NCBI GenBank assembly: GCA_019695185.1
Contig: JAIBAN010000006.1
Location: 1-64,000, forward strand
DNA: 64,000 bases
Origin: Blastocatellia bacterium
GTDB taxonomy: Bacteria > Acidobacteriota > Blastocatellia > Chloracidobacteriales > Chloracidobacteriaceae
Reading direction: 5' to 3'
The notes beneath the pieces were generated by a model. It was not told the origin of the DNA. It made no database searches and saw nothing but the letters and a program-made list of their open reading frames with translations. Within the stretch, counting starts at the first letter, position 1. Each line of letters starts with the position of its first letter. The position numbers and the translations under genes were made by a program. Shown here piece by piece: positions 14,734 to 53,420 of this stretch.

Positions 14734-15501
14734 TCAGTTTTGATTGTGAAAAAACACAATCTTGGAAAAAGTCTCGGCATCAAGACTGGCTCCGCCGACA
14801 AGCGCGCCGTCAATATCTGCTTCGTTCATAAACGATGCGATGTTGTCGGGTTTGACGCTCCCTCCGTAGAGGATACGGAGTTGTTGAGCTGCTTCGCTGC
14901 CGAATTTTTCCTGTACGACCGAGCGGATGAGGCGATGCATTGATTGAGCAATTTCCGGTGTCGCTGCACGCCCGGTGCCGATAGCCCAGACCGGTTCGTA
15001 GGCGGCGACTATACGGAAAAGGTCTGGGGCTGTCAAGCTTCTTGTTCCTTCCAGAACCTGACTGGTAACCACGGCTTCAGCCTGTCCGGCATCTCGTTCG
15101 GCAAGTGTTTCGCCAACACAAAGAATCGGAATCAGTCCGGCAGTCAGGGCCCGCACCAGCTTTTTTGCCACTAAGGCGTTGGTTTCATTGTAATATTGCC
15201 GTCGCTCTGAGTGACCGATGATGACATGGGTACAACCGGCATCAGCCAGCATTTCCGCACTGATTTCACCGGTGAAGGCTCCTTCGGCAGCCTCAGCCGC
15301 ACAATTTTGCCCGGCAATCCGAATCTGGCTGCCTTCCAGGCGGTCGGCAACGGTTTTCAGCGCGGTAAAAACGGGTGCAATGAGCACCTCGCAGTGGTTG
15401 GCGTTATAGGTCCGCGATTTCAAATCCAGTGCCGTTGTGACGGATTGGGCAACCGTTTTGAACATCTTCCAGTTTCCGGCAATGATAGGTTTGCGTTTCA
15501 T
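14734..15501 (-). CDS. tpiA: Triosephosphate isomerase
   Basis: Interconverts dihydroxyacetone phosphate and glyceraldehyde 3-phosphate in glycolysis. 255 residues. Active-site residues are all present: N10 and K12 in AGNWKM, H97 in GHSERR, E170 in [11 protein letters not shown], and the phosphate loop YGGSVKPDN plus GALVGGASL. The ATG has no ribosome site: its leader is a TTCAGGG/CCCTGAA heptamer array ending 4 bases upstream. Likely co-transcribed with secG. Confidence 0.97.
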
Positions 15502-15505
15502 AAAA

Positions 15506-15639
15506 TCAGGGTTCAGGGTTCAGGGTTCAGGGTTCAGGGTTTGTAGGGCAAGTCAGGTTCACAGGTAAAGGCTCGAATGGTCAGAAAAAGTGCAAAAATC
15601 TCATCAGACAAGACCCTGAACCCTGAACCCTGAACCCTG
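15506..15639. repeat. Inverted TTCAGGG heptamer arrays in the tpiA leader
   Basis: Left arm 15506-15541 has five copies of the unit; right arm 15612-15639 has four copies in reverse complement; the loop is 70 bp. The left arm ends 4 bases from the tpiA start codon, and the right arm lies 3 bases from the stop of the upstream ATPase gene (15643-15645), so the structure spans the whole intergenic gap. Confidence 0.9.
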
Positions 15640-15642
15640 GTC

Positions 15643-18600
15643 TTACTCTTCCAGGATTTCATTCAAGGTTCGAATGACTTCATCGTTGAGACGTGGCATG
15701 TCACCGCTTTCCAAAATGGCAGCGATGATACGAATGGTGTCGGCCTTGCGCTCCTTGCGGGCTTTGAGCTTGTCACGCAGTTCGGCTCGGCGGGCACGGA
15801 GCATGTCACGGTGAATTTCAATGCCGCGTTTAACATAGCGCCGGGTCCGTTCGGCGGCTACGCTCAAGCGGTTGGCATCGTCAGGATGGAATCCACAAAT
15901 ACAAATCGGATGTTTGGCCAGACGGTCCGGCACGTCCTCCGTGCAAATCATTTGATAGATCATGGAAATCTGATTGATGGCATCAACATGAAAATCCTGA
16001 CGGCTGATGGTCAGTTGTGAAATCATCTCAAGATTGTTCCATTCCTCGCCGGAAACGATTTCCTGGCACAAGGGTTCAATCACAGCCGGGTCACTGGCTT
16101 CCTGATGCAAGCGGACGTAAAAATCGATGTAAAGCGGCTGGTAGGTGACAAAGTGGAGGTCAAAGCGGTGCCGGACCTGGGGGTCAAAAAACTGCCAGAG
16201 CGCGCCTTGCTGAGAGAGCATTTCGTATTTCAGCTTTTCCATGAAAAGGTCGCTGGTGGGCACGCTGGCTTTGACATATTCGATTTTGGTTTCATATTCA
16301 GCCGCAATGGAGTTGAAGTCGTAAATCCGCTCCATCATCTCGCGGGCCTGCCAGAAATTATCAGGGTCACTGTCAAAGAGGTACATCACCTCTTCGAATT
16401 CCTCATTAAGTGATTTTTGGGCAATCGCATGGCGCACGTGGAAGGCGGTTTTTTCAAACAGGCGCTCGGCAGCCAGACACCGTTGGACGTCTGTCGCTGT
16501 GGGTGGTGCCTTGCGCAGTTTTTCCATAACCCGTGAAACATCCCGCCGCTGCCAGTTCTGGAAGTAGCCGGCCAACCCGCCCAGCGCCTCCCCAAGGCTT
16601 GTGGGTCTGAAATCTGCTGCCTGGGTTTGGGTGGGAGCCAGCAGGTAGCTGACCCATTCAACCGTCTCAGGCAGTAATTCGTCGGCTGGAATTTCATCTT
16701 CCGGAATGACGGGTGAGGTCAAGGGCAGGAGCCAGGTATTCAACGACCAGGGCATTTCCCCTTGCGGCACCGGCACCCGCCCACTGGCTCCGTCCCGGAA
16801 CTGAAACTCACCTCGTTCCAGATAGTTGCGGCGAAAAATCCGTTCGACTTCGGTCCGCAGCCTGTGTTCGATTTTGGCTGCTTCATCACTGAGCGTGGTC
16901 TGATGACGGGTCAAACTTCGCAATACTACCAGTTGTTTGATGGTCCAGATATCTTCCAGGTCAAGAATGCTGGGGACCCAACGGACAAAAATTGAGCCGG
17001 GCGAGGGACGCTGGCTGTCGGGCATGTCAAACGTTTTGGGTTCTTTGGAAACCACCGGAAAGTCGATTGAAATGGAAAAAATCGGTGATTGGCGCAGTGG
17101 CATGGTGGTTTCGGGCTGGGCCGGCTGCACAATAAATCCGGTGGTATCCTGTTTGGCAATATGCCAGATATGAGTGTAACGTGGCTGCCAGACCACTTCA
17201 CCTTTGACTGCGACTTCAATCGGCCAGTCTTCAAAGAAACCGGCCCCGCACAGGAGGACGGTGATGCCAATACTGGTGTCGGTATTAGGCAGGTCACGGG
17301 CCAGGGCGGCAATTCGTTCTTCCAGGACCTGGCCTTCATGCAGCGGAAACCGGTATTGACATTCCAGTTCTTCGCCTTCGGCTTCGACGGATTTGGACAG
17401 GCTGCGGATTTGTTTGAGGACCGCCGCCGCCAAGGCATAGCTCTGGTTTTTACCAGTCAAATCATAAAACAGAATGCTGTTGGTCAAATCCCGGACCGTG
17501 GCCGGTTGTCCGGCCAGTGTGTGCATAAGGATGGCTTTGATGAGCATCCGGGTATGCAGTCGCTGATTTTGACTGACACGGGGCAGCACCGCCTCAATCG
17601 TCCGGTCATAGGCTTTGAAGGCATAAGCCAGTTGCGGATTGGACCGGAGCCCCGCCTCCAGTAAATCGTGCATTTCATCAACCGTGTACAGGCTTTCCGC
17701 CGGGCGGTTTTTGATTTTATCCGCAGCTTTGGTCGCAAAGGCCGGAAAAGAAAACGATTCAAGATAGGGACGCAGGCGGGAGCCGATTTTCCAAACTGCC
17801 GGATGGAGCGGGTACAGGTTGATGAGTTCCTGCTCGTCCAGCTTCAGTTCGGGCAGACTGACCAGCAGTTGCTCCCGAACCTTGCTGATGAGAGTCCGCT
17901 GCCGTGCATTTTTGCTGACCAAGTGGACGCCAATCAATGCCGGAATGGCATTGCCGGAAAGATATTCCAAATGACAGGAGCCCATCATCTGCATGACCTG
18001 CTCGCCCGTCAGCCAATCATAATTGACTGAATCAAGGGCACGGTCATTGATGTTGGTCAAAAGGGCCAATGGGAATTTCTGAGAAGCGGCACTGAGAACC
18101 CGCAACAGGTTGACAATCCGTTGACCCCGCTGGAAATCACGTGACTTGAGCCAGCTTTCCAGGCTGTCAATCACCACGAGCAGAGTGGTGTCACCAGGCA
18201 GACTCTTGAATGCAGTTCCAATTTCGTCAACGGCGGCCTGCAGGTTGAGTGCTTCGTTCGTATTCGCAGTGGTGGCCAGATGGCGCAGATAATGTTTGAT
18301 GTATTCCAGTCCGGGTTGTGAAACCGTGACGGCTTCGGCAGTTTGCTGCGACAGTTCCAATGTGAGGAAGGTCCGGCGGGCAATCAGAGCATGGAGCTCC
18401 TTAAGCCGGTTATGGGCCTGGGGCAAGGGGTGCCCCCCTTGCGTCAGCAGTGCCTGCAACAGTTTGGTGGTATAGGTCTTGCCGCTGCCGGGCGGACCTA
18501 CCAAAATGACTGCATGCTGGTTGTGGGAAGTAGAGGTAATATACTCGAAGAGACGCTGGAGGACATCCCCCAATTCATACGTCATAAGCGCTTCAGGCAA

Positions 18601-18684
18601 TAAGCGCGATTCCCAGCCATGTTCTGAAAAATCAATCGGTTGATAGGGGGCAATGGAGATACACTCCCGGATTCGGTTGGCCAT
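15643..18684 (-). CDS. Large P-loop ATPase, possibly BrxC/DUF6079-like
   Basis: 1013 residues from MANRIRECISIAPYQP (an upstream GTG/Met at 18732 is possible). Walker A GPPGSGKT is at 63-70. The Walker B-like strand TLLVVIDSLES has Asp at 173, and ALLTNIND looks like a sensor segment. NLYPLHPAVWKIG, a YPLHP box, lies near residue 300. Large, multi-domain ATPases of this build with an LHP box include BrxC/PglY of BREX phage defence and related DUF499/DUF6079 proteins. The C-terminal third is helical, with CICGFHP near 935 and a very basic helix (RARRAELRDKLKARKERK). No PglZ, PglX, BrxA or BrxB is nearby: neighbours are tpiA and xdhA. Treat the BREX link as tentative. It may be a stand-alone stress or replication-linked ATPase. 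Confidence 0.6.
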   Translation of the reverse strand: MANRIRECISIAPYQPIDFSEHGWESRLLPEALMTYELGDVLQRLFEYITSTSHNQHAVILVGPPGSGKTYTTKLLQALLTQGGHPLPQAHNRLKELHALIARRTFLTLELSQQTAEAVTVSQPGLEYIKHYLRHLATTANTNEALNLQAAVDEIGTAFKSLPGDTTLLVVIDSLESWLKSRDFQRGQRIVNLLRVLSAASQKFPLALLTNINDRALDSVNYDWLTGEQVMQMMGSCHLEYLSGNAIPALIGVHLVSKNARQRTLISKVREQLLVSLPELKLDEQELINLYPLHPAVWKIGSRLRPYLESFSFPAFATKAADKIKNRPAESLYTVDEMHDLLEAGLRSNPQLAYAFKAYDRTIEAVLPRVSQNQRLHTRMLIKAILMHTLAGQPATVRDLTNSILFYDLTGKNQSYALAAAVLKQIRSLSKSVEAEGEELECQYRFPLHEGQVLEERIAALARDLPNTDTSIGITVLLCGAGFFEDWPIEVAVKGEVVWQPRYTHIWHIAKQDTTGFIVQPAQPETTMPLRQSPIFSISIDFPVVSKEPKTFDMPDSQRPSPGSIFVRWVPSILDLEDIWTIKQLVVLRSLTRHQTTLSDEAAKIEHRLRTEVERIFRRNYLERGEFQFRDGASGRVPVPQGEMPWSLNTWLLPLTSPVIPEDEIPADELLPETVEWVSYLLAPTQTQAADFRPTSLGEALGGLAGYFQNWQRRDVSRVMEKLRKAPPTATDVQRCLAAERLFEKTAFHVRHAIAQKSLNEEFEEVMYLFDSDPDNFWQAREMMERIYDFNSIAAEYETKIEYVKASVPTSDLFMEKLKYEMLSQQGALWQFFDPQVRHRFDLHFVTYQPLYIDFYVRLHQEASDPAVIEPLCQEIVSGEEWNNLEMISQLTISRQDFHVDAINQISMIYQMICTEDVPDRLAKHPICICGFHPDDANRLSVAAERTRRYVKRGIEIHRDMLRARRAELRDKLKARKERKADTIRIIAAILESGDMPRLNDEVIRTLNEILEE

Positions 18685-18862
18685 AACCCTTGTTCGAAAG
18701 TCGAAATTGTTTTGATTTACAACCACATGCAATGGGGTGAAGCTTCCGTCTTTTGCGTGACGCTTGCATCATATACCAGGAAACGGTTGGAAATGAAATT
18801 ACCTGGAGCAAAAAAGACTTGGCTTGAATCTGAAAATGTTCGGGGGTAAGCTGCGTTTTCAA

Positions 18863-18993
18863 CCAGGGTTCAGGGTTCAGGGTTCAGGGTTCAGGGTTTT
18901 CAATCCTGGGTTCCGGCCCTTCCCACCAAAGCCCGTTCACGCAACTCGCAAGTTTTCTCAATTCTGAATCCTGAACCCTCAATCTGGACCCTG
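18863..18993. repeat. TTCAGGG heptamer array upstream of xdhA
   Basis: 18863-18898 has five exact or near-exact TTCAGGG units. 18970-18993 has degenerate reverse-complement units, ending 5 bases before the xdhA start. It occupies the 314-bp divergent gap between the ATPase gene and xdhA. No separate promoter is clear. Confidence 0.8.
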
Positions 18994-18998
18994 CACCT

Positions 18999-20411
18999 AT
19001 GCGCGACTTCATTCATTTTTACCTCAATGGAAAACCTGTCACTCTTTCCGGAAGCGCCGTGTTTCAAACGCTTTCAGACTTTCTCCGCTATGAACGGGGC
19101 GCAACCGGAACCAAAGTTGTTTGCGCCGAGGGGGATTGCGGAGCCTGTACGGTGCTGCTGGGCAAGGTCGAGGCCGGAGCTCTGGCCTACCGGGCGGTCA
19201 ATTCCTGTATTCAATCCCTCTATCAACTTGACTGCACTCATGTCATCACGGTTGAAGGTGTCAAACTCAACGGAACGCTCTGCGCTGTGCAGGAGGCCAT
19301 GACTGCCAACCATGCGGCGCAATGCGGGTACTGCACGCCTGGTTTTGTGGTTTCCATGTGTGGTCTCTTTGATGCACAGACCTCTGTCACTGAGCAGGAC
19401 ATCAAGGACGCTCTGACCGGAAACCTTTGCCGGTGCACCGGTTATGAACCGATTATCAAATCGGGGCTGGCGGTTGAAACCGACCGGGTGGTGAAATTCA
19501 GCCAGATGTATCCGCAGGCCGAAATGCTGGAATCCTTCCGGAAACTGGCTGACCAGCCGATTTATATTCAAGCCGGCAACCAAACCTTTGGCAGCCCAAC
19601 CGAGACCGCCGGGGCCATCAAATTCAAAGCCGGGCATGAAAAAACCGTCGTGGTGCAGGGAGCGACTGATGTCGGGGTATGGTGTAACAAACGAAACTTT
19701 GTTCCACCTGCCGTGTTGAGCCTTTCCAAGATTGAGGAACTGAAAGACCTGACCATCGCAGGGGATGTGGTGCGGGTTGGGGCACGGGTGACCTTGAGCG
19801 AGTTGGAAGCGTTCATCAAGGATGTGGTGCCGGAATTTTACGCCATTCTGAACATTTTCGGCGCACCTCAGATAAAAAATGCCGGAACCCTGGCCGGTAA
19901 TATCGCAAACGGTTCGCCAATCGCCGATACGCTCCCGTTTCTGTTTGTGATGGAAGCCGAACTGGAACTGGCCGGTGGGCAGGGAAGTCGGCGGGTGGGC
20001 ATCCGCGAGTTTTATAAAGGCTATAAAACATTTGACTTGGCTGCGGATGAAATCATTGTGCGGGTGCATATTCCGCTGCCGCAACCGGGTGAAACGCTCA
20101 AATTGTACAAAGTCTCCAAACGCAAAGACCTGGATATTTCAACTTTCACGGCAGCCATTCGCCTGACCGTGGAACAAGGCATGGTGGGAAATGTGCGGAT
20201 TGCCTACGGCGGAGTTGGACCGGTGGTCCTGCGGTTGCCTCGGACGGAAGCCTTTTTGAGCGGCAAGACCCACACCCTAGAAACCTACGAAGCCGCCGGT
20301 TTGCTCGCCCGCGAGGAAATCACGCCGATTTCCGATGTGCGCGGGTCAAGTGAGTTCCGGTTTCAGTTGGCGGAAAATATTTTGCAGAAGTTCTTTTACG
20401 AAACCTGCTGA
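18999..20411 (+). CDS. xdhA: Xanthine dehydrogenase, iron-sulfur/FAD subunit
   Basis: Electron-transfer subunit that carries electrons from the molybdenum site to NAD+. 470 residues. The N-terminal plant-ferredoxin-type [2Fe-2S] domain has VCAEGDCGACTV (C42, C47, C50) and a partner Cys near 72 (NSCIQSL). The second helical [2Fe-2S] domain has CGYCTPGF and CRCTGYEP near 111-147. The FAD-binding domain spans about 190-360, and the CO-dehydrogenase-flavoprotein C-terminal domain follows. It is followed after a 163-bp repeat-filled gap by the catalytic subunit and then xdhC, the standard operon order for bacterial purine oxidation. There is almost no ribosome site: the leader is array sequence. 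Confidence 0.93.
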   Translation: MRDFIHFYLNGKPVTLSGSAVFQTLSDFLRYERGATGTKVVCAEGDCGACTVLLGKVEAGALAYRAVNSCIQSLYQLDCTHVITVEGVKLNGTLCAVQEAMTANHAAQCGYCTPGFVVSMCGLFDAQTSVTEQDIKDALTGNLCRCTGYEPIIKSGLAVETDRVVKFSQMYPQAEMLESFRKLADQPIYIQAGNQTFGSPTETAGAIKFKAGHEKTVVVQGATDVGVWCNKRNFVPPAVLSLSKIEELKDLTIAGDVVRVGARVTLSELEAFIKDVVPEFYAILNIFGAPQIKNAGTLAGNIANGSPIADTLPFLFVMEAELELAGGQGSRRVGIREFYKGYKTFDLAADEIIVRVHIPLPQPGETLKLYKVSKRKDLDISTFTAAIRLTVEQGMVGNVRIAYGGVGPVVLRLPRTEAFLSGKTHTLETYEAAGLLAREEITPISDVRGSSEFRFQLAENILQKFFYETC

Positions 20412-23732: not shown

Positions 23733-24333
23733 CCAGGGTTCAGGGTTCAGGGTTCAGAGTTCAGGGTTTTCGAATGCCGAAAATTTGAGAGGCTATTCCA
23801 AGTTTCAAAACTCAGAACTCAAAACTCAAAATTCAGAACTCAACAAAAAGACCCTGAACCCTGAACCCTTGACTGGGGATTGCTTTTTTTCAGCGGGTCT
23901 CGACTGAACCTGAAAGAACGAGTCAGGACCGCCTGCGGCAACCTTGTCTTTCGTCATCAGAAGTTCATTGACCGGCACGGCACGCCTTCCACGCATTCCG
24001 GAGGAATGCCACCTGCTCCGGCAGGAGCAGATTCAGATAGCCAGGGTGTGGAGCGGAGCGCAACCCCTGGAAAACAGTTCCAGCCTGATTCCGCGCTCCG
24101 GCCGGAGCGCCAGCTCTCCGTGGGAAACGCACTCCTGCCGGAGTGCGGGTGGATTGGGCATCCCAGTCCAGGGGTTGCGCTCCGCTTCACACCCTGGCTA
24201 CCAGATGGCCTTCCTCCGGAAGACTCCAAGGTATGGTCAAGCCGGTTCGAGTTCAATTGCTGGTTGGCCGAAAAAAGCAATCCCCAGTCAACCCTGAACC
24301 CTGAACCCTGAACCCTGAACCCTGAACCCTGAA
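23733..24333. repeat. Cluster of heptamer arrays between xdhC and a kinase gene
   Basis: TTCAGGG units lie at 23733-23769, AACTCAAA-type units at 23804-23843, CCCTGAA units at 23850-23868, and six CCCTGAA units at 24291-24333. The last array ends 5 bases before the kinase start codon, which has no ribosome site. The first array starts one base after the xdhC stop codon. Confidence 0.9.
23869..24291. repeat. Nested inverted-repeat element with five CCGG-core hairpins
   Basis: The outer arms are 21 bp, perfect (23869-23889 and 24271-24291, core GACTGGGGATTGC). The inner arms are 33 bp with one mismatch (24038-24070 and 24168-24200, core GGAGCGCAACCCC). Small hairpins of similar design lie inside and beside them: 23993-24009, 24013-24030, 24093-24110, 24129-24146 and 24210-24222, each with stem ending TCC and starting GGA around a GG/CC core. 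No ORF here is convincing. It resembles a REP/MITE-like or structured-RNA element. Confidence 0.8.
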
Positions 24334-53365: not shown

Positions 53366-53420
53366 CCTGAACCCTCAACCCTCAACCCTCAACCCTGAAC
53401 CCTCAACCCTAGACCCTGAA
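53366..53420. repeat. CCCTCAA/CCCTGAA heptamer array
   Basis: Seven units with alternating Gly-like variants CCCTCAA and CCCTGAA, ending 11 bases before the S55 start codon and leading into the ribosome site GGAGGGG. A degenerate facing arm lies at 53303-53331. Confidence 0.85.

What the first reader, a model, noticed from the sequence alone, without database searches (positions are those of the whole stretch)
15643..18684. Stand-alone BrxC/DUF6079-like P-loop ATPase
A 1013-residue ATPase with Walker A, a DS-type Walker B and a YPLHP box looks like the ATPase core of BREX-type systems, yet the neighbours are housekeeping genes. It could be an orphan defence or a distinct cellular ATPase.
Basis: inference. 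Interest (0 to 1): 0.55.

Follow-up and report, generated by a model that had tools for sequence, protein, structure and literature searches.

The report
Chromosomal BrxC-like ATPase, not BREX
This gene encodes a lone relative of the ATPase at the heart of BREX phage-defence systems, but it is found throughout its bacterial family without the other BREX parts, which suggests that this type of protein also does an unknown everyday job in the cell.

Summary
In detail: an intact 1013-aa ATPase gene on the minus strand (15643-18684), with Walker A, a Walker B lacking the catalytic Glu, and LYPLHP. It belongs to the DUF6079/BrxC superfamily (Pfam DUF6079 2.3e-18; PADLOC BrxC 3.7e-13); BrxC is the best structural match of its clade (Z 20.8). 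It is not a BREX gene: orthologues occur in 10 of 10 genomes of its family, while a PglZ search found none in the 9 others. Its tree clade (100/99) excludes all 5 BREX BrxC rows tested, has lost the Walker-B Glu in 28 of 29 rows (8 have Asp), and mostly carries a C-x-C motif that those BREX rows lack; by alignment the window protein also lacks the second winged helix. A longer paralogue is in 62 of 98 relatives, with partly conserved neighbours. tpiA synteny is not conserved. In sister families the gene lies near a class A penicillin-binding-protein gene (13 of 15 genomes that have it; 0 of 18 in the window's own class), and in one family the C-terminal half often survives without its ATPase. 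Best reading: a vertically inherited cellular ATP-binding scaffold with an unknown partner; orphan defence is the main rival. New variant of a known kind; function untested.

The parts
15643..18684 (-). CDS of the 1013-aa stand-alone BrxC/DUF6079-superfamily ATPase (short type, S)
18475..18498 (-). Walker A GPPGSGKT, residues 63-70 (the Lys is present in all 43 rows of the superfamily alignment)
18157..18189 (-). Walker B strand and Asp173-Ser174 (residues 166-176); the Glu of BrxC is replaced, with an acidic residue at 176 in all 11 S rows
17896..17913 (-). Lys258...Arg263; the Lys is in 41 of 43 rows. Correspondence to the arginine-finger residues K326/R330 of BrxC-Aci is inferred (that protein was not in the alignment)
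17800..17817 (-). LYPLHP box, residues 290-295 (Tyr 37, first Pro 43, His 36, second Pro 41 of 43 rows)
16675..16707 (-). Point (about residues 660-670) where two stretches of the long paralogue (L043 629-662 and 673-785, 147 residues), taken as its second winged-helix region, are missing
15646..16647 (-). C-terminal helical half (about residues 680-1013), the part that survives alone in family f34
15889..15945 (-). Cys motif C914-x13-C928-x-C930-G-F (residues 914-932), possible metal site
14734..15501 (-). tpiA, downstream neighbour in this genome only among the short-form loci read
18999..20411 (+). xanthine-dehydrogenase small-subunit-like gene, divergent upstream neighbour, shared with G003

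Best explanation
The gene encodes a stand-alone member of the BrxC/DUF6079 superfamily, most likely inherited vertically and with a cellular, non-BREX role. Shown by sequence and prediction: a BrxC-type AAA+ domain followed by helical, winged-helix and alpha+beta regions, Walker A and the LYPLHP box kept, the Walker-B glutamate lost, the stretch that holds the second winged helix of its long paralogue missing, and a helical C-terminal half with a Cys-x-Cys motif. Inferred: it binds ATP, turns it over slowly or not at all, and uses ATP binding to dimerise or oligomerise, as the E-to-Q mutant of BrxC does; the C-terminal half docks a partner, since in a sister family that half persists without the ATPase. 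The partner and pathway are unknown; an envelope link is hinted at only by the sister families' class A PBP neighbours.
For: Short orthologues in 10 of 10 family-f1 genomes, the window's included (9 full length at 44-100% identity, 1 cut by a contig end). No PglZ match in 9 of 9 other f1 genomes. Long paralogue in 62 of 98 relatives (f1 10/10, f2 4/4, f4 46/55, f6 1/1, f7 1/11, f3/f5/f8/f9 0/17), with M48 peptidase and DUF2520 neighbours recurring. Clade S+L+F at 100/99, apart from BREX, DUF6079-core and TPR-paired rows; S and L subtrees agree on the order of the f1 genomes they share. Walker-B Glu lost in 28 of 29 rows of the clade, kept in 14 of 14 outside it. Purifying selection. No relative found in phage or plasmid records or viral contigs. 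Best PDB match is BrxC for both models. BrxC E269Q lowers hydrolysis and stabilises ATP-driven dimers (PMC13326643, passages).
Against: No partner, phenotype or biochemistry. Short-form neighbours differ between genera (tpiA in the window genome, amt in 6 of 7 g3 loci), so context gives no function. The long form is missing from many genomes of the class (36 of 98 relatives). Window-G003 identity in the alpha+beta region (0.39) is low beside 0.78 in the lid/winged-helix region, which also fits fast-evolving defence proteins. In 8 of the 28 Glu-less rows the residue is Asp, and all S rows have another acid two places on, so hydrolysis may persist. The S model is mediocre (mean pLDDT 74, pTM 0.48). 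Vertical descent was not tested against a species tree.
Confidence: 0.6

Rival explanations
1. An orphan (single-gene) defence protein that became fixed in the family: a BrxC-like ATPase that senses invading DNA and acts without BREX partners.
For: The BrxC and DUF6079 relatives in the paper passages seen are defence proteins. The alpha+beta region is the least conserved between window and G003 (0.39). f2 and f6 genomes carry several divergent copies.
Against: Present in 10 of 10 family genomes rather than patchily, under purifying selection, no match found in phage or plasmid records or viral contigs; flanking genes are housekeeping genes; in sister family f34 C-terminal halves sit by a PBP gene.
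Confidence: 0.22
2. A BREX component or relic working in trans with BREX loci elsewhere in the genome.
For: The window genome has PglZ on two other contigs, one overlapping a full-length BrxC gene (L080) and one beside BrxL (L079).
Against: 9 of 9 other family genomes have the gene but no PglZ match; the tree separates it from BREX BrxC; it lacks the Walker-B Glu and, by alignment, the second winged helix.
Confidence: 0.05
3. A cell-envelope factor: the clade works with class A penicillin-binding proteins, and the Blastocatellia members keep that role from other genomic positions.
For: A PBP gene (transglycosylase plus transpeptidase) lies upstream on the same strand in 4 of 4 f24 genomes and in 9 of 9 f34 genomes that have the gene (8 by PF00912, 1 by a truncated PBP frame; one of the 8 is 2.3 kb away).
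Against: 0 of 2 f40 and 0 of 18 Blastocatellia genomes show this adjacency; 6 of 15 f34 genomes lack the gene; adjacency is not interaction; the f34 row is long-branched.
Confidence: 0.13

Closest known systems
BrxC/PglY ATPase of BREX (PDB 9zll, 9zdx)
   Same: AAA+ ORC/Cdc6-like domain, lid and winged-helix region of the N-terminal module (L model Z 20.8 over 398 residues, next fold 13.2; S model Z 10.7 over 209 residues, next 8.3), the conserved Lys258 and YP of the YPLHP box; profile-profile homology.
   Different: No PglZ in 9 of 9 other family genomes and no BREX model among 10 flanking genes; separate clade; Walker-B Glu lost; Cys-x-Cys motif present; second winged-helix stretch missing in the window protein.
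Pfam DUF6079 core members (rows D)
   Same: Profile match above cut-off; a Cys cluster at the same place, P-x-C-x-x-C, in 4 of 5 D rows.
   Different: D rows keep the Walker-B Glu and lie beside an N4/N6 methyltransferase gene in 4 of 5 loci; tree group 100/100 apart from S.
TPR-paired BrxC-like ATPases of other Acidobacteriota (rows T)
   Same: C-x-C-G-F motif in 4 of 4; superfamily core.
   Different: 1426-1769 aa, Walker-B DE, TPR-protein gene divergent next door in 2 of 4 loci.
ORC/Cdc6 AAA+ ATPases
   Same: AAA+ and winged-helix arrangement; ORC/Cdc6 chains are prominent after BrxC in the structural lists.
   Different: No ORC/Cdc6 family among the window protein's Pfam matches up to E 10; the C-terminal half was not tested against known folds by itself.

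Membership tests
DUF6079 (Pfam PF19557) | Profile score above the curated cut-off | tested here: met
   65.6 bits against cut-off 23; best stretch residues 52-305
DUF6079 (Pfam PF19557) | Match along the whole 1238-position profile | tested here: not met
   two stretches only, the best 56-309 of 1238; core D members match 1-1238
BREX BrxC/PglY | N-terminal AAA+ plus winged-helix module | tested here: met
   BrxC chains 9zll/9zdx are the best matches of both models; the S model itself aligns only over residues 14-251, the L model over 7-431; hhalign of the short-form profile with BrxC covers 167-629
BREX BrxC/PglY | Walker B with catalytic Glu | tested here: not met
   Asp173-Ser174; Glu absent from 11 of 11 S rows, present in 5 of 5 BREX rows
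BREX BrxC/PglY | Second winged helix after the alpha+beta domain | tested here: not met
   by alignment: 147 residues of L043 (629-662, 673-785) are missing from the window protein; they hold a BREX_BrxC_wHTH match at 706-755 that is itself weak (E 0.0027, below cut-off)
BREX BrxC/PglY | PglZ and methyltransferase in the same locus | tested here: not met
   no BREX model among 10 flanking proteins; PglZ in 0 of 9 other f1 genomes and in the window genome only on other contigs
BREX BrxC/PglY | Phylogenetic placement with BREX BrxC | tested here: not met
   S in a clade with L and F at 100/99, BREX rows outside; only 5 BREX rows of two kinds were used and their long branches may attract each other
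BREX BrxC/PglY | ATP-dependent dimerisation and DNA binding | not testable with these tools
   needs purified protein
DUF499 ATPases (BR systems) | Best profile match to DUF499 | tested here: not met
   DUF499 is not among the 18 Pfam matches up to E 10, the best being DUF6079

The most novel reading that the evidence does not exclude
The BrxC-type machine is not only a defence part: an old, vertically inherited branch in Acidobacteriota serves a core cellular process, possibly cell-wall synthesis with class A PBPs, as an ATP-binding (not ATP-burning) scaffold whose C-terminal cysteine module is the essential part, so that BREX and this housekeeping branch are two uses of one machine.
Probability: 0.3. 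Interest if true: 0.78.

Novelty: new variant of a known kind. Interest (0 to 1): 0.5.

Why it matters
BrxC is treated as a defence ATPase, and homologues without a BREX neighbourhood are easily set aside (the 2026 survey discarded a small fraction of hits that it could not assign, which it put down largely to incomplete neighbourhoods; PMC12839542 passage). A clade that spreads over several Acidobacteriota families, has lost the catalytic Glu and lives without PglZ in its family would show what the BrxC core does outside defence, and warns against annotating such genes as BREX. Relatives of genus g3, which I take to be Chloracidobacterium because three of their contig lengths equal those of records with Chloracidobacterium or Blastocatellia titles, carry it; that some of this genus are cultured is recalled, not looked up.

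Tried and rejected
tpiA synteny as evidence of function: rejected, tpiA is next to the gene in this genome only among the short-form loci read. The short form as BREX partner in trans: disfavoured, no PglZ match in the other family genomes. Horizontal or mobile origin: no match in plasmids, phages or viral contigs at the thresholds used; GC of the gene (0.51-0.55) matches its surroundings (0.51-0.56). Sequence search of the PDB with the single protein gave nothing useful; the A3 profile found BrxC. A genome-contig scan found 6 loci, five with Chloracidobacterium or Blastocatellia titles and one titled Actinomycetota whose scaffold name says Acidobacteria and whose contig length equals that of G001:C352; it uses short peptide patterns, and phyla other than Acidobacteriota were not otherwise searched. 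Promoter and terminator scans were at chance level. No structure coordinates were in the Python box, so the geometry of the cysteine site could not be checked. The PDB comparisons say little about the C-terminal half, which was not folded alone. Paper searches for a stand-alone BrxC, for BrxC with PBP and peptidoglycan, and for BREX with Acidobacteri and orphan returned 0 papers each; DUF6079 returned 2; only open-licence papers are searched.

Full report
What is there. The feature at 15643-18684 is an intact minus-strand gene of 1013 codons; the plus strand has 14 stops. It carries Walker A GPPGSGKT (63-70), a Walker B strand ending in Asp173-Ser174, and LYPLHP (290-295). Pfam gives DUF6079 at 2.3e-18, over cut-off but on two stretches only, the best at residues 52-305; PADLOC gives BrxC-PglY at 3.7e-13 over 37-403; NCBIfam has nothing over a cut-off. 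Flanking genes include SecG, triosephosphate isomerase, alanine racemase, a VWA protein and xanthine-dehydrogenase-type genes; of 10 flanking proteins given to PADLOC, 8 had no match and 2 only partial matches of at most 35 bits. The genome is an 8.3-Mb, 222-contig assembly; relatives in a named collection are titled Chloracidobacterium and Blastocatellia MAGs.

Distribution. In 98 genomes, the window's included, the short form (S) is found at full length in 9 of 10 genomes of the family and cut by a contig end in the tenth; two diverged copies (28 and 31%) occur in G017 of family f6. A long form (L, 1147-1269 aa in the rows read, about 25% identical to S) was sought with a 15-row profile: strong matches in f1 10/10, f2 4/4, f4 46/55, f6 1/1, f7 1/11 and 0/17 in f3, f5, f8 and f9 (weak matches of 59 and 45 bits in G028 and G044), in all 62 of 98. 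This is my count from the listed rows, taking 500 bits, or several large pieces, as strong. Eight of the nine f4 genomes without it come from four genera, two of which (g9, g29) lack it in all three genomes sampled; the ninth is G092, 90% complete. A 396-genome phylum search with the 21-row profile A3 added families f24, f34 and f40. In the order of G125 the gene is in 6 of 6 genomes, in family f34 in 9 of 15.

Not BREX. PglZ was found in 0 of 9 other f1 genomes and in the window genome on two other contigs: C35, where a full-length BrxC-PglY (1410 bits) overlaps PglZ, and C191, where PglZ is followed by BrxL. All 5 rows used as BREX BrxC are full-length PADLOC BrxC (1306-2008 bits). The three type-2-like ones lie next to PglZ; for the two type-1-like ones my PglZ queries found none within 4 kb, but BrxA is near both and PglX beside L076. 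In a 43-row tree S is a group at 100/100 and S+L+F24/F40 at 100/99; the type-2-like (3) and type-1-like (2) BrxC, DUF6079-core (5) and TPR-paired (4) rows lie outside, each as its own group. L alone is weakly supported (77/55), deep forks between the outer groups are weak, and the two BrxC kinds are long branches. Profile-profile comparison still shows homology with BREX BrxC (99.6% for A3, 96.0% for A1).

What sets the clade apart. The Walker-B Glu is kept in 14 of 14 rows outside the clade and lost in 28 of 29 inside it (L_G002 keeps it); 8 of the 28 have Asp. All 11 S rows have an acidic residue three places after the Walker-B Asp. A motif C-x13-C-x-C-G-F (914-932 in the window) is present as C-x-C in S 11/11, L 11/15 (lost in the three g3 rows and G010b), F 3/3, T 4/4 and f34 7/7; D rows have C-x-x-C in 4 of 5; BREX rows have no C-x-C, 0 of 5. 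So the motif is shared with T and is not unique to the clade. It could be a metal site; this was not tested. By alignment the window protein lacks 147 residues of the long form, L043 629-662 and 673-785, which include a weak BrxC winged-helix match at 706-755.

Structure. The S model has mean pLDDT 74 and pTM 0.48; its best PDB matches are BrxC 9zll/9zdx (Foldseek 2.7e-5; Z 10.7, rmsd 4.0, 209 residues, next fold 8.3). The L model (pLDDT 84.7, pTM 0.46) matches BrxC over residues 7-431 at Z 20.8, rmsd 5.4, 398 residues, well above the next fold, ORC/Cdc6 at 13.2. The C-terminal halves were not tested separately.

Context. S has no fixed neighbour: tpiA in the window genome, xdh shared only with G003, amt within 0.9 kb in 6 of 7 genus-g3 loci (in the seventh the contig ends about 1 kb from the gene). 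Of the 20 long-form loci read, M48 peptidase is divergent upstream in 10 (f1 2 of 5, f4 8 of 8) and DUF2520 is adjacent in 10 (f4 7 of 8, f2 2, f6 1). In f24 the gene follows a class A PBP gene with a 2-bp gap or an overlap (2 of 2 loci read; 4 of 4 genomes by position); in f34 a PBP gene is upstream on the same strand in 9 of 9 genomes that have the gene, one by a truncated PBP frame and one 2.3 kb away; in f40 0 of 2 and in Blastocatellia 0 of 18. Of 7 f34 proteins read, only G267's keeps Walker A; the other 6 (366-815 aa) lack it, while all 7 keep the C-terminal cysteines. G267's copy also lacks the second winged-helix stretch but groups with F24/F40 (84/97, long branch).

Evolution. dN/dS of six S pairs is 0.067-0.144 and of three L pairs 0.062-0.087 (dS is above 1 in seven of the nine). 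Window-G003 identity is 0.57, 0.78, 0.39, 0.61, 0.70 along five parts and 59% overall, against 64-77% for three neighbouring xdh-type proteins between the same genomes. S and L subtrees give the same order for the f1 genomes they share; no test against a species tree was made.

Mechanism. In BrxC-Aci, Walker-B E269Q lowers hydrolysis and stabilises ATP-driven dimers, and BrxB:PglZ binding centres on the AAA+ domain (PMC13326643, passages only). By analogy a protein with Walker A but no catalytic Glu should bind ATP and assemble. The persistence of the C-terminal half alone in f34 points to that half as the partner-binding part. Both steps are inference.

Known work. The 2026 BREX survey (PMC12839542, passages only) names DUF6079 as the top hit of all BrxC ATPases, describes a seven-component HerA/FtsK system with DUF6079, and discarded a small fraction of unassigned hits; its main text has no 'acidobacteri' or 'orphan'. 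I found no description of this clade in the searches.

Verdict. Real, correctly recognised, not BREX; most likely a cellular ATP-binding scaffold of unknown partner.

Noticed in passing
window 15501-15541, 15612-15645, 18861-18899, 23739-23768, 24290-24333, 53384-53406: Arrays of the heptamer AACCCTG, most of them between genes; between tpiA and the ATPase gene they form a 33-nt inverted pair (94% complementary). The 21-mer of three units occurs at 428 + 376 (overlapping) places in the genome against 0 for the reversed control.
   Followed up: partly
L080 5409-9176 and 3070-5412; L079 6045-8570 and 3943-5994: The window genome has a BrxC-PglY gene overlapping PglZ on contig C35, and PglZ followed by BrxL on contig C191: BREX-type loci apart from the window gene.
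   Followed up: partly
L072 3482-8920; L075 4665-10071: A BrxC-like ATPase of over 1400 aa divergent from a TPR-protein gene, a possible two-gene system in other Acidobacteriota.
   Followed up: partly
L084 7781-9544; L085 6746-8035; L086 777-2504; L087 7941-9110; L088 7178-8278; L089 6417-8864: C-terminal halves of the family without Walker A, near a class A PBP gene; L089 keeps what looks like a decayed N-terminal part.
   Followed up: partly
L063-L067: Core DUF6079 genes beside an N4/N6 DNA methyltransferase gene in 4 of 5 loci, RM-like.
   Followed up: no
L052 7098-13259; L053 7540-11742: Enlarged divergent copies of the long form (2053 and 1400 aa) in one f2 genome, G011.
   Followed up: no
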